Source: Stramenopiles sp. TOSAG23-2 (lineage: Eukaryota > Sar). From it: a DNA stretch of 23,540 nucleotides. Within the stretch, counting starts at the first letter, position 1; the number at the start of each line of letters is the position of its first letter. Under the pieces are notes generated by a model. The model was given only the letters and a program-made list of their open reading frames with translations, did no database searches and had not been told where the DNA came from. The translations under genes were made by a program, and so were the position numbers. Below, one piece after another: positions 1 to 4,714 of the stretch. The stretch spans positions 1 through 23,540 of the forward strand of contig LT649485.1 in NCBI GenBank assembly GCA_900128395.1, in the 5' to 3' direction.

Positions 1-55
1 TCCTGGATCCAACTTGAAAGCCATTCCTTTTCTTTTCGAAGATAATAGGTGTTTC
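1..55 (-). repeat. 55-bp inverted copy of part of the 416-aa gene, left arm
   Basis: Bases 1-55, read on the minus strand, are identical over all 55 bases to 2560-2614 on the plus strand. Identity stops at 56 inward and may continue beyond the left edge. Both arms are read in the same codon frame, so two divergent genes share this peptide segment. Confidence 0.95.
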
Positions 56-1008
56 GAATGAGCCGGCATGACCAGGACACAACGCATTTCGATAGACTGC
101 CTGGGCGGAGCATCCGCCGGGGTGTTCACATCCTCAAAGGCAGAGTGCGCACAGGGCGCGTGCTCCTTGGCGTCCGAGTCGTAGCCAATGAAGACCAACA
201 GCTCCTCTCTGGTCAGCCCAGGGTAATAATAGAATTGCTGCCCCTCGCGCCGCGTCAAGCCAAGCCTCCCGACAACGCCGCCGCAACCGTCGCCGCTTTT
301 GATGGTGCGCTTGTCAGCGACGGCGAGAGGGCAGCGTCTCACCGGCTCATCGCTGGTGTTTCTCCAAGTGTTCAGTACTACCATACGACGCTCAGCGAGC
401 CGTTCGGCCGTTAGACCAGCCGCCTTCATCTGTGCGGGCACGTCGCTGCTATTGACAAACGACATCGCGAGCTTCTCCTCCATTGTCCACGACTGGTTGG
501 GTTCCTCCCCACTCAGGGCACACATATATGCCTCTTTCATGTTGCCGGTATAATCGTTGTGTACGTGGTAGAGCGGCTTGGACTCCTGCTTTTGCGAGCC
601 CTCGAGTCGGCTGACGTGAGGCCCACCCAGGAATATGTGTTCCGCACCCGTCAACTCCCTCAACACAGCGAACACCTCATCGTAATAGGTCGACGCCAGT
701 AACTCCTCGTTCAACCAGTCCGTGATGGAGCTTACATGCGACACCACCGTTAAGCCCGCGGAGCTAGGCAGCAAAATGTCGGCGTCCTGCGGCAGCAACC
801 GGGCGTTGTGAACCTCCAAGGTGTACGTGTCCTGCTCGTAGCACTCGAAAACGTTGGCCGGGTCGCAGCCCACCTTCAGCCGCCTGAAATTGAAGACGCC
901 AGTGGTTGCCATTGGATACGTTACAGGTTTTTTTTTTGATGCTTCATTTGTTTTTTGTTCGTTTAATACTGACGCCATTTTTAAAACTTCGTGTTCGCTG
1001 CTGGACAT
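1..1008 (-). CDS. CmcJ/AsaB/NvfI-like non-heme Fe(II) oxygenase, partial (3' end off the window)
   Basis: The minus strand is open for 336 codons from ATG at 1008 to the window edge with no stop, so the 3' end is missing. Sequence blocks match the CmcJ/AsaB/NvfI family (cephalosporin methoxylation and fungal secondary-metabolite oxygenases): HVHND at residues 148-152, giving the HxD pair H150/D152; VLNTWR at 211-216; CPLAVADKRT at 226-235; FYYYPGLTREELLVFIGYDS at 259-278; CAHSAF with H288 as third iron ligand; RQSIEMR at 303-309. Family knowledge makes it a 2-oxoglutarate/iron oxygenase or a relative that has lost that use; the substrate is unknown. Codons 1-34 are AT-rich like the neighbours, then composition turns sharply GC-rich (121-180 is 38/60 G+C). 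The final 18 codons copy residues 293-310 of the 416-aa neighbour in the same reading frame. It is divergent from that gene across 676 bp. Family assignment is fairly sure. Confidence 0.8.
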   Translation of the reverse strand, partial: MSSSEHEVLKMASVLNEQKTNEASKKKPVTYPMATTGVFNFRRLKVGCDPANVFECYEQDTYTLEVHNARLLPQDADILLPSSAGLTVVSHVSSITDWLNEELLASTYYDEVFAVLRELTGAEHIFLGGPHVSRLEGSQKQESKPLYHVHNDYTGNMKEAYMCALSGEEPNQSWTMEEKLAMSFVNSSDVPAQMKAAGLTAERLAERRMVVLNTWRNTSDEPVRRCPLAVADKRTIKSGDGCGGVVGRLGLTRREGQQFYYYPGLTREELLVFIGYDSDAKEHAPCAHSAFEDVNTPADAPPRQSIEMRCVLVMPAHSKHLLSSKRKGMAFKLDPG

Positions 1009-1209
1009 ATTGTCAATTTAAAAAAAAGAAGTTGGTTTTGAATATGCGTTTGTGATTTTTGTTAATATTTATTTATAACTTTTTAAAAAAGATTGTTTTA
1101 AAAATAGTTTTCGTATTTATTATGTTTCAAAAATATTATTTATTATGTGTGTAAATTGTAAATATAGAATAATACAAATAATACTGTGCTGGTGTGCTGA
1201 GTGTTCTAC

Positions 1210-1272
1210 GACACTATTTTCACCATTTCGTAGCGTGAACACAGCAGGAAAACGATAATTTTTTTGACACCC
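1210..1272. repeat. 63-bp dispersed direct repeat, copy 1
   Basis: It matches 1440-1502 with three mismatches (60/63). The AAGCTTCT word also occurs near both copies (about 1278 and 1431), so the duplicated unit may once have been longer. It may be a degraded mobile-element or gene fragment; it has no terminal inverted repeats that I can see. Confidence 0.85.
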
Positions 1273-1439
1273 ACTTTAAGCTTCTATAATAAAAATAATA
1301 AAGTATCTTTTTTGATTTTTTGTTGACTATGATTATGATGAGTTAGCTGGTTAGATTGATAATGATGATTGTTGATGATAGGCACATAGTAAAAAAAAGA
1401 ATAATAAGAACTATCACATGCTGTGCGTAAAAGCTTCTT

Positions 1440-1502
1440 GACACTATTTTCACCATTTCGTAGCATGAACACAGCAGCAAAACCATAATTTTTTTGACAC
1501 CC
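1440..1502. repeat. 63-bp dispersed direct repeat, copy 2
   Basis: Second copy of the 1210-1272 element in direct orientation, 230 bp away, with three substitutions. Minus-strand reading is open across this copy but the peptide resembles nothing I know. Confidence 0.85.
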
Positions 1503-1684
1503 GTAAAAGATAGCTGCCAATTAGCACTAAATCTATCCATCTATCCATAATAAAATAAAGTAAATGTAATGATGAGTAGGTCAATTTGTAATTATTATTA
1601 TTAATATAAGTTCAATAGCAGCTGCAACATCAAACAGTTCACAGCACATCATCATTCCATTTAACAACAGAGGAAACTAGAAGG

Positions 1685-2935
1685 ATGTCGTCTTTAAAAG
1701 AAGGTCAACTCTTTCAAGTAAGGAAAACAAAGTCATCAAAATTTTTTAGCCGTGCAGAGCTCGCAGACGCAGTGGAAAAATGGAACTTGTTGGCATATGA
1801 CTCCGACGAACTAATTGTTTTGTGTAAAAGGTCCACTTGCAGGAACCTAAGGTTTGTAAATAGATACCAAGGATGTTTCAAAGCACCCCATACTCGATGT
1901 AAAGGCGTCAAATATGTTAAAACAATTACTGAACGCTCATTGCTACGTCGCCTCCGTAGTTTTGACCATACAGTGAAAAAGACTGCGGAAATAGGAAAAC
2001 AAATTAGCTTTACGGACACCGTTATGGACGAAACCAACAAAAAGGAAAATGACTTTGGTTTGAAAGATCCCAAGGGAGATACAATTTACTTCAACAACTT
2101 AGATAATGTTGAGCAGCGAGAGCCGCAAGATGCAAAAACGAAAATAGTAGCTTTTTCATTTCTCCCGGCGTTTGTGTTTCTTTTTTATTATCATACACCT
2201 AGTAAGACCAGTAACGTTAACACCAGGTATCTTAAAGCTTGGAATCACACTGGTGTTTTGAAGGAGCGTGCTAGCGTGTCGTTTGATTGTTTGGTTCAAT
2301 TTGCATTTGGATTTTGTCTTTTGTTTTGTATTATGAAAATTAGATGGAAAAGATTACAACGTTGCTACTTCAAAACCATAAAGCGCCACTTTTATCGGTC
2401 GGCTGCGCAAAAGGCGGGTCATGTGCCCGTTTTCAAAAATAGAAAGGAAGAATTGGGATGTGTGCATCACAATACTAAACACAGTCAACAAGAGATTGTT
2501 CATATCAAAAACGCATATGCAGCTCTCGCTAGGCCAAATTTGACATACAGAACTGCCAAGAAACACCTATTATCTTCGAAAAGAAAAGGAATGGCTTTCA
2601 AGTTGGATCCAGGAGCCCTCTCGAGTGCTCGCTTGAAAAAAATTGAGGTCAACGAGTCTAATGGTGCAGCTCAGAAAACAGATATTAGTGTGTATGCTGA
2701 GATATATGATAAATGCGATGGTGACTTTGACAAAATTGCAGAAATGTTATCTAGTGGTAGAGATCATGTTGTGTGGAAAGATGGTATTAATAGTAGCTCT
2801 GCCACAGACGCGGAAGATTTTGCGATAAAAATATTGACCGGTGCCCTTTTGGCTTCCGATCGTAAAGGTGGTTCCCAAGCTGGCATTTTGACATTGGGCG
2901 CTAGCAAAGTATCCGAAGGTAAAAGCAAAAAGTAA
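1685..2935 (+). CDS. Unrecognised 416-aa protein with a Cys/His cluster and two hydrophobic segments
   Basis: I do not recognise this family. The N-terminal ~110 residues are basic, with a Cys/His cluster (CKRSTC near residue 48, then GCFKAPHTRC near 62-72) that could bind zinc. Two hydrophobic stretches follow: IVAFSFLPAFVFLFYYH near 154-170 and FAFGFCLLFCIMKI near 207-220. A basic segment comes next, then an acidic C-terminal part (ISVYAEIYDKCDGDFDKIAE). ATG 1685 is the first in a long open frame. The peptide KHLLSSKRKGMAFKLDPG (residues 293-310) is shared exactly with the end of the divergent oxygenase frame. The stop used here is at 2933-2935. Alternatively a 93-nt GT-AG intron (2919-3011, GAAG|GTAAAA...GATTAG) would replace the last five residues with an 18-residue tail ending KTNVYT at 3067. 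It could be a mobile-element or membrane protein; neither is shown. Confidence 0.7.
   Translation: MSSLKEGQLFQVRKTKSSKFFSRAELADAVEKWNLLAYDSDELIVLCKRSTCRNLRFVNRYQGCFKAPHTRCKGVKYVKTITERSLLRRLRSFDHTVKKTAEIGKQISFTDTVMDETNKKENDFGLKDPKGDTIYFNNLDNVEQREPQDAKTKIVAFSFLPAFVFLFYYHTPSKTSNVNTRYLKAWNHTGVLKERASVSFDCLVQFAFGFCLLFCIMKIRWKRLQRCYFKTIKRHFYRSAAQKAGHVPVFKNRKEELGCVHHNTKHSQQEIVHIKNAYAALARPNLTYRTAKKHLLSSKRKGMAFKLDPGALSSARLKKIEVNESNGAAQKTDISVYAEIYDKCDGDFDKIAEMLSSGRDHVVWKDGINSSSATDAEDFAIKILTGALLASDRKGGSQAGILTLGASKVSEGKSKK
2560..2614 (+). repeat. 55-bp inverted copy, right arm
   Basis: Exact reverse complement of 1-55, lying inside the 416-aa coding sequence. The intact, unfused context here suggests this is the source and the left-edge copy the derivative, but the sequence left of the window is needed to tell. 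Confidence 0.95.
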
Positions 2936-3119
2936 TGTTTATATCGCATTATCTCGTCATCATGTTTTGGTTTGCTATATTTTGATATTTGATTTTTCTG
3001 TGCTCGATTAGGTTCCTCCAACTGGGGCACTGACTGGCGAGTGAGCAAAACTAATGTTTATACTTAAATCGAGCATTAATATTGTGAACGTCCCAAATCC
3101 TATGATATTACTGTTGCTC

Positions 3120-3343
3120 TCGTGATATGAATTTGACCTATGAATTATTGAGTAAAACGAGTCAATGATGTAGAGCAACGCCTTAAGATGAAAGCTATGA
3201 AACAAAATGCTGTTGTAAATAATAATAATAATCGTGATATGAATTTGACCTATGAATTATTGAGTAAAACGAGTCAATGATGTAGAGCAACGCCTTAAGA
3301 TGAAAGCTATGAAACAAAATGCTGTTGTAAATAATAATAATAA
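3120..3343. repeat. 112-bp tandem duplication (3120-3231 and 3232-3343)
   Basis: Two head-to-tail copies of 112 bp, identical as far as I can read, ending in AAT triplets. The second copy contains the start codon and first codons of the small LRR gene. The first copy contains the same ATG (3189), but there the frame runs only 30 codons to a stop. The duplication therefore gives a decoy start upstream of the real one. Confidence 0.9.
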
Positions 3344-3770
3344 TAATAATAATAATAGTAAGAAGAAAAGTGCTGCATGTATGAAATGGGAAAAAGAATT
3401 TGAAGGAAAGACTGAGATTAACTTGTATAATAATAATATCACCGATGACGGAGCGAAACACATTGCCGAGGCGTTGAAAGAGAATAGGAGTTTGACTGTG
3501 ATTAACTTGTATGGAAATAATATCACCGATGACGGAGCGAAACATATTGCCGAGGCGTTGAAAGTGAATACTAGTTTGACATATATTAGCTTGAGGAATA
3601 ATAACATCACCGATGACGGAGCGAAACATATTGCCGAGGCGTTGAAAGTGAATACTAGTTTGACTATGATTAGCTTAGGTGAAAATAATATCACCGATGA
3701 CACAAAAAAATGGCTGAAAAAAGAATGCAAACGTGATGGATTAACAATTTATATATATAAATACGAATAG
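3300..3770 (+). CDS. Small ribonuclease-inhibitor-type LRR protein, 156 aa
   Basis: After an Asn run (residues 11-19) and a basic linker, 28-residue leucine-rich repeats of the NLRC3/RNI type begin at residue 45: NNITDDGAKHIAEALK..SLT.I.L is repeated at 45-72, 73-100 and 101-128, then a truncated fourth repeat passes into a lysine-rich tail. At DNA level the units are 84 bp (starts at 3432, 3516, 3600, 3684) and nearly identical, so expansion is recent. No signal peptide or membrane segment is visible. Four repeats make a very short solenoid, so this may be a fragment of a larger repeat gene. The frame is open upstream of 3300 for 13 codons (VKRVNDVEQRLK just before the Met), so an upstream exon is possible. 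Function is probably protein binding; nothing more can be said. Confidence 0.75.
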   Translation: MKAMKQNAVVNNNNNNNNNSKKKSAACMKWEKEFEGKTEINLYNNNITDDGAKHIAEALKENRSLTVINLYGNNITDDGAKHIAEALKVNTSLTYISLRNNNITDDGAKHIAEALKVNTSLTMISLGENNITDDTKKWLKKECKRDGLTIYIYKYE

Positions 3771-4532: not shown

Positions 4533-4714
4533 AGCTCTATTATCGACATTTTAATTATATAATCCAATTTTGGATAATTCATTTTCAAAAAAGAATTACC
4601 TTCCTGAAAAATTCTACCTTGATAGCTCTATTATCGACATTTTAATTATATAATCCAATTTTGGATAATTCATTTTCAAAAAAGAATTACCTTCCTGAAA
4701 AATTCTACCTTGAT
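4533..4714. repeat. 91-bp perfect tandem duplication (4533-4623 and 4624-4714)
   Basis: Two identical 91-bp copies lie directly head to tail over the end of the cyclophilin coding region. Because 91 is not a multiple of three, the second copy encountered shifts the frame and the protein stops at 4614 (ending IIELSR). On the coding strand the unit contains GAAG|GTAATT, so a GT-AG intron of exactly 91 nt (4600-4690) could remove one copy and restore the frame. Confidence 0.95.

What the first reader, a model, noticed from the sequence alone, without database searches (positions are those of the whole stretch)
1..1008. GC-rich oxygenase with an AT-rich native start and a borrowed tail: a chimeric, possibly transferred gene
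The frame has three parts. Codons 1-34 are AT-rich like the host, codons 35-318 are GC-rich and carry an intact CmcJ/AsaB-type HxD...H iron site, and codons 319-336 are identical in DNA and frame to part of the neighbouring 416-aa gene. The composition step at about 905 and the exact 55-bp tail suggest a foreign catalytic domain captured between host sequences. CmcJ/AsaB relatives are best known from fungi and bacteria, which fits transfer but does not prove it.
Basis: partly seen in the sequence, partly recalled or inferred. Interest (0 to 1): 0.75.

Follow-up and report, generated by a model that had tools for sequence, protein, structure and literature searches.

The report
Foreign-looking oxygenase gene at contig end
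The three-part gene at the left edge of this plankton DNA fragment is most likely not a real hybrid gene: its tail looks like a copying or assembly error at the fragment's end, and its GC-rich middle is a nearly complete, ordinary oxygenase gene that looks as if it came from another marine eukaryote, either joined on by mistake or, less likely, recently acquired.

Summary
In detail: codons 1-32 are AT-rich (GC3 0.28), codons 33-317 GC-rich (GC3 0.75; next of 94 ORFs 0.37), and bases 1-55 are an exact inverted copy of 2560-2614 in the 416-aa gene. The window is a whole contig, so the 55-bp "tail" is its physical end and the ORF has no stop. The segment is native to the 416-aa gene and in 0 of 45 oxygenase homologues. 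An exact inverted match 2.5 kb away fits an inverted amplification chimera or a k-mer overlap at a contig end; a weak test at 77 other ends showed none of 55 bp. The GC-rich block is nearly the whole CDS of a CmcJ/NvfI-family Fe(II)/2-oxoglutarate oxygenase, triad H150/D152/H288 kept. Its closest relatives (up to 91%) include marine-eukaryote entries. Of nine other family matches in the assembly, the six measured are AT-rich (GC3 0.14-0.19) and the four put in a tree fall outside its clade. The block is foreign by composition and tree; most likely misjoined DNA. Recent transfer is not excluded, because the composition step sits at the native start codon. Interest is low.

The parts
1..55 (-). 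Contig-terminal 55 bp, exact inverted copy of 2560-2614; read in frame it gives the 'borrowed tail' (codons 319-336 plus the last base of codon 318)
   Evidence: absent from 45 of 45 homologues
56..912 (-). GC-rich block: nearly complete CDS (M33 to S318, stop not seen) of a CmcJ/NvfI-family Fe(II)/2-oxoglutarate oxygenase; H150, D152 and H288 are the metal ligands by alignment
   Evidence: NF041278 159 bits, cut-off 80; alignment; NvfI E 4.7e-22; GC3 0.751
913..1008 (-). AT-rich in-frame extension, codons 1-32, upstream of the family's start; probably flanking sequence rather than protein
   Evidence: GC3 0.28; start column
1009..1684 (.). AT-rich intergenic stretch holding two copies (95%) of a 63-bp repeat at 1210-1272 and 1440-1502
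   Evidence: 1278-1330 has a 91% match at C248
1685..2935 (+). 416-aa gene, owner of the 55-bp segment (2560-2614); closest named relative is a EukProt MAST-4 stramenopile protein, 83-85% identity
2560..2614 (+). Interior copy of the 55-bp segment, residues about 292-310 of the 416-aa protein; present in four close relatives

Best explanation
There is no three-part hybrid gene. (1) The tail is an artefact at the contig's left end. A growing strand copied leftwards through the oxygenase gene re-primed in inverted orientation on the nearby 416-aa gene (or the assembler met an equivalent junction), and the contig stops after an overlap of exactly 55 bases, a common assembly k-mer length (recalled). 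(2) The GC-rich block is real DNA: a nearly complete, open CmcJ/NvfI-family Fe(II)/2-oxoglutarate oxygenase CDS from another marine eukaryote (prey, associated or contaminating DNA), most likely joined to this AT-rich stramenopile-like sequence at about 935-910 during amplification or assembly. (3) Codons 1-32 are AT-rich flanking sequence that happens to be open. Shown: the exact inverted match at the contig end, the composition step, the family membership, the distance from host paralogues in the tree. Inferred: amplification by MDA, the k-mer, the misjoin at the step, the oxygenase reaction.
For: The inverted match begins at base 1 of the contig and is exactly 55 bp; the only other place found in the assembly lies 2.5 kb away, inverted. 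In one MDA study 406 of 475 mapped chimeras were inverted, with partners tending to lie under 10 kb apart (PMC1855051, Results read). The segment is native to the 416-aa gene: four close relatives have it, while it is in 0 of 45 oxygenase homologues (best local score 31 against 93 for itself). The assembly resembles MAST-4A single-cell data: 20 contig starts are 30-35% GC, the neighbouring gene has a MAST-4 relative, and published MAST-4A SAGs averaged 33.9% GC, were assembled with SPAdes, and the foreign DNA suspected in one SAG was left in (PMC5269757, passages). The contig has other oddities: five head-to-tail duplications of 91-170 bp, 99-100% identical. The block's GC3 is 0.75 against 0.14-0.19 at six host loci of the family, and it nests among outside proteins.
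Against: The composition step falls within about 10-25 bp of the family's start codon, and the other end at the last codon, which random breakpoints would rarely give. The tail joins in frame. No other contig end tested showed a 55-bp overlap: 0 of 77 (weak, since each scored only 40 candidates and one search was filled by the ends' own places), and in 18 usable contig starts of up to 10 kb no inverted terminal match was over 16 bp; so k = 55 is not corroborated. Inverted MDA chimeras are mostly intramolecular, which would mean that the block was already linked to the 416-aa gene when the tail junction formed. That this is a single-cell assembly is inferred; no tool says so.
Confidence: 0.6

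Rival explanations
1. Recent eukaryote-to-eukaryote gene transfer: the stramenopile carries the GC-rich oxygenase CDS next to the 416-aa gene, read from an AT-rich host promoter (perhaps with a 32-codon host extension), and only the 55-bp tail is artefact.
For: The switch in composition sits at the family's start codon, as expected if selection kept an insertion that gained a host promoter. The frame is open and the end branch short (0.032). An intramolecular chimera at the tail implies linkage to the 416-aa gene (logic). The host already has this enzyme family: 10 matches, 8 over the NF041278 cut-off, the window's included.
Against: GC3 of 0.75 shows no adjustment to the host; the block sits at a contig end beside an anomalous junction; no MAST-named protein among the 45 homologues, though only a few of these bear names; no second copy in the assembly.
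Confidence: 0.25
2. Genuine chimeric gene: host N-terminus, foreign oxygenase and a C-terminal piece copied by inverted duplication from the 416-aa gene.
For: All three parts are in one open frame; an assembler would also stop about k bases into a longer true inverted duplication.
Against: The tail ends with the contig; it is in 0 of 45 homologues; inverted, nearby joins are the commonest amplification artefact; residues 318-336 are modelled with pLDDT under 50.
Confidence: 0.08
3. The left part of the contig (1 to about 3231, up to the 112-bp exact duplication) comes from a different organism than the rest, one with more GC-rich genes, and was scaffolded on.
For: After the oxygenase, the two ORFs with the highest GC3 of the 94 are the next two in the window, 0.372 at 3300-3767 and 0.368 at 1685-2932; the 416-aa gene has no paralogue found in the assembly; an exact duplication lies at 3120-3343.
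Against: The 3300-3770 LRR protein, which begins inside the second copy of the duplication, has 154 matches in this assembly, its own included; tetranucleotides of three 1.5-kb windows within 1001-3500 are within the host range (62nd-81st percentile); it does not explain a GC3 of 0.75 beside 0.37.
Confidence: 0.07

Closest known systems
NvfI (Fe(II)/2-oxoglutarate endoperoxidase; PDB 7de2, 7emz, 7enb; fungal, recalled)
   Same: Profile match E 4.7e-22 to 7emz; HxD and distal His align (NvfI H155/D157/H270 with H150/D152/H288); best Foldseek hits
   Different: Only 22-23% identity in the structural alignment; substrate of the window's enzyme unknown
CTB9 (Cercospora 2-oxoglutarate-dependent dioxygenase; PDB 7eus, 7eut, 7euu)
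   Same: Similar fold by Foldseek; profile match E 1.2e-11
   Different: 19% identity; the best sequence stretch covers only profile positions 28-102
NCBIfam NF041278 CmcJ/NvfI family oxidoreductase
   Same: 159 bits over a cut-off of 80, residues 57-313
   Different: Subfamily-level name; no reaction is implied
Inverted MDA chimeras (Lasken and Stockwell 2007, PMC1855051)
   Same: Inverted join of two places less than 10 kb apart
   Different: Complementarity at the join cannot be measured, because the contig does not continue past it

Membership tests
CmcJ/NvfI oxidoreductases (NF041278) | Score over the curated cut-off across the domain | tested here: met
   159.1 bits, cut-off 80, profile 30-262 of 263
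CmcJ/NvfI oxidoreductases (NF041278) | HxD...H iron site | tested here: met
   H150 and D152 in 19 of 19 rows, H288 in 18 of 18 rows with that part; aligned with NvfI
CmcJ/NvfI oxidoreductases (NF041278) | Double-stranded beta-helix fold | tested here: inconclusive
   All 10 Foldseek hits with E up to 0.001 are NvfI or CTB9, but mean pLDDT is 66 and 130-154, with two ligands, is under 50
CmcJ/NvfI oxidoreductases (NF041278) | Fe(II)/2-oxoglutarate-dependent oxidation | not testable with these tools
   needs an enzyme assay
Inverted amplification (MDA) chimera | Join in inverted orientation to a place under 10 kb away | tested here: met
   1-55 against 2560-2614, inverted, 2504 nt between the arms
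Inverted amplification (MDA) chimera | Short complementarity at the join | tested here: inconclusive
   sequence beyond the join is unknown; upstream of the 55-mer 5 of 30 bases agree
De Bruijn k-mer overlap at a contig end | Overlaps of one fixed length at other contig ends | tested here: inconclusive
   0 of 77 ends showed a 55-bp terminal overlap, but only 40 candidates were scored per search, most of them the ends' own places or repeats; even one own place (end of C790) is missing
Horizontally transferred gene | Foreign composition and a tree position outside host copies | tested here: met
   equally expected of contaminant DNA
Horizontally transferred gene | Confirmed joins to host DNA on both sides | tested here: not met
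   left side is the contig end; right side rests on one contig

The most novel reading that the evidence does not exclude
A MAST-4-like stramenopile has very recently acquired, from another marine eukaryote, just the coding sequence of a CmcJ/NvfI oxygenase, placed start codon to last codon between host sequences and read from a host promoter; the CDS-exact boundaries would then point to a cassette-like or retroposed capture.
Probability: 0.15. Interest if true: 0.55.

Novelty: not a real feature. Interest (0 to 1): 0.17.

Why it matters
Left unexamined, this contig would enter databases as a stramenopile fusion gene and as a case of transfer. The check shows that the fusion rests on the last 55 bases of a contig, and that the oxygenase belongs to a clade of close relatives seen in marine-eukaryote data, which is ordinary. 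If the CDS were truly resident, it would be a very fresh eukaryote-to-eukaryote transfer, whose composition has not yet changed.

Tried and rejected
Fungal or bacterial source of the block: rejected as the closest source. Of 45 homologues, 38 are 44-91% identical and include one MMETSP and two EukProt entries; the other seven are 24-29%. Scans of viral contigs and of bacterial/archaeal genome contigs gave 10 pattern matches each and no relative.

Pfam on six window proteins gave nothing for the oxygenase at E up to 0.01, although most of its homologues carry PF27522. No RNA family at gathering score and no tRNA in the window.

Fixed k-mer overlaps at other contig ends: sought at 77 ends, none of 55 bp seen. 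This is weak: each search scored 40 candidates (of 475, 99 and 447), and the own places of 39 ends nearly filled the list. Four fetched starts were left out because they hold withheld letters (L011, L022; L067, L089). In one search, of 20 contig starts (two begin with N), none of the 18 usable had an inverted terminal match over 16 bp.

One search was made with the frame cut at base 56, so it did not itself test the tail; one search did, on all 45 sequences.

Tree: left out six fragmentary or fused homologues (P0030, P0031, P0032, P0035, P0036, P0038), host locus L006 (619-aa ORF), L005 (twin of L004) and the host loci found later (C147, C63, C191); L003 and L007 are under half filled and several long branches meet, so only the broad separation is used. 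GC3 of C147, C63 and C191 was not measured.

Literature: PMC1855051, abstract and Results read; PMC5269757, passages only; all others, search listings only. The SPAdes paper is not held; that 55 is a common SPAdes k is recalled.

Full report
What is there. The window is the complete contig C252 (23,540 bp) of an unnamed 17.45-Mb assembly in 793 contigs. Its first 1,008 bases on the minus strand are an open frame of 336 codons that runs off the contig end without a stop. The three-part make-up is real. Codons 1-32 have GC 0.34 and GC3 0.28; codons 33-317 have GC 0.589 and GC3 0.751. In 94 ORFs from the window and 20 other contig starts GC3 averages 0.241, sd 0.066, and the next value below the block is 0.372. 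GC over 300 bp reaches 0.623 in the block and at most 0.553 in the 20 other contig starts. In 40-base steps the change runs from 0.35 (940-901) to 0.62 (900-861).

The tail. Bases 1-55 are 100% complementary to 2560-2614, the match begins at base 1, and a search with 1-110 found no third place in the assembly. Upstream of it the two contexts share 5 of 30 bases. The segment belongs to the 416-aa gene at 1685-2935: four close relatives, 85-91% identical, have it, one of them a EukProt MAST-4 stramenopile protein. It is in none of the 45 oxygenase homologues (best local score 31, against 93 for itself and 80-93 in the four relatives of the 416-aa protein). An inverted join to a nearby place is the commonest product of multiple displacement amplification in the study read: 406 of 475 mapped chimeras were inverted, with the two places tending to lie less than 10 kb apart (PMC1855051). 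The exact length of 55 is a common k of SPAdes (recalled), and a contig may stop after one k-mer at such a junction. A search for the same at 77 other contig ends found none, but with 40 candidates scored per search, largely the ends' own places and repeats, this is a weak test; in 18 usable contig starts of up to 10 kb no inverted terminal match was over 16 bp. The k-mer reading is thus not corroborated. A genuine inverted duplication longer than 55 bp would look the same and is not excluded.

The block. The protein scores 159 bits against NCBIfam NF041278 (cut-off 80). In an alignment of 19 sequences H150 and D152 are in all 19 and H288 in the 18 with that part; they align with H155, D157 and H270 of NvfI. 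A model of modest quality (mean pLDDT 66, poor at 130-154) finds only NvfI and CTB9 at E up to 0.001. Most likely function, inferred: Fe(II)/2-oxoglutarate-dependent oxidation of a small molecule. Eleven of 18 aligned homologues start at the column of M33, and 8 of the 17 with a C-terminus end at that of S318, so the block is nearly the whole CDS. The 32 codons before M33 lie outside the family; 8,234 of 30,092 comparable 32-codon stretches in this assembly are open (coding stretches included), so an open frame there means little.

Where it comes from. The closest protein is 91% identical; 38 of 45 hits are 44-91% identical, mostly about 290 aa, and include one MMETSP and two EukProt entries, which are collections of eukaryote sequences (recalled). 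The source organism could not be named. The host assembly holds ten NF041278 matches, eight over the cut-off, the window's included. Of the nine others, the family ORFs at six loci (C458, C268, two on C715, C251, C651) have GC3 0.14-0.19; three were not measured. In a 44-row tree the window's protein lies within a supported set of 19 rows (95/87), and the four host paralogues used lie outside the 34-row group that holds it (94/98), with long branches that forbid finer claims. By composition and by tree the block is foreign to this assembly.

Misjoin or transfer. Foreign DNA fits both. For a misjoin: the contig end, the anomalous junction at 55, five head-to-tail duplications of 91-170 bp (99-100% identical) on this contig, exact ones of 50 bp and more being seen in only 3 of 20 other contig starts, no second copy of the gene, and the fact that in one published MAST-4A study the foreign DNA suspected in a single-cell assembly was left in (PMC5269757, passages); this assembly resembles those in GC. 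For transfer: the step falls at the family's start codon, within about 10-25 bp, and the other boundary at the last codon; two random breakpoints would seldom do this. P0002 shares the residues YP just before M33, so homology may begin a few bases upstream. I cannot explain the two boundaries under a misjoin and leave this as the main open point. I put misjoined foreign DNA at 0.6 and resident transfer at 0.25.

Verdict. The chimeric three-part gene is not supported; the oxygenase itself is an ordinary member of a known family. Interest is low, with a modest reserve for a very recent eukaryote-to-eukaryote transfer.

Noticed in passing
3120-3343, 4533-4714, 16915-17162, 17553-17892, 17926-18189: Five head-to-tail duplications of 112, 91, 124, 170 and 132 bp, 99-100% identical; exact ones also in 3 of 20 other contig starts (C250 five, C350 one, C450 three), so perhaps uncollapsed overlaps at joins of a subset of contigs.
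   Followed up: partly
15394-17605: An LRR-like frame stops just inside the second copy of the 124-bp duplication, and the same residues recur at the start of the next ORF.
   Followed up: no
1210-1272 and 1440-1502: Two 95% identical copies of a 63-bp element between the oxygenase and the 416-aa gene.
   Followed up: no
1685-2935: The first 90 or so residues of the 416-aa protein are 62-74% identical to three otherwise different proteins, one with a WW domain: an unnamed conserved N-terminal domain.
   Followed up: partly
1685-2932 and 3300-3767: These two ORFs have the highest GC3 (0.368, 0.372) of the 94 after the oxygenase, hinting that the whole left end differs in origin.
   Followed up: partly
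L004 and L005 (C715): A 322-aa CmcJ-family ORF occurs twice on one 11-kb contig with equal match scores about 8 kb apart; the contig's first 100 bases also recur at 8006.
   Followed up: no
L006 (C251:2528-3268): CmcJ-family domain inside a 619-aa ORF, with a further part not identified.
   Followed up: no
3300-3770: LRR protein of a very large family in this assembly: 154 matches, its own included.
   Followed up: no
7387-9210: 607-aa protein 99% identical to an ENA protein cluster of 49 members, with only two remote relatives (26-27%) otherwise.
   Followed up: no
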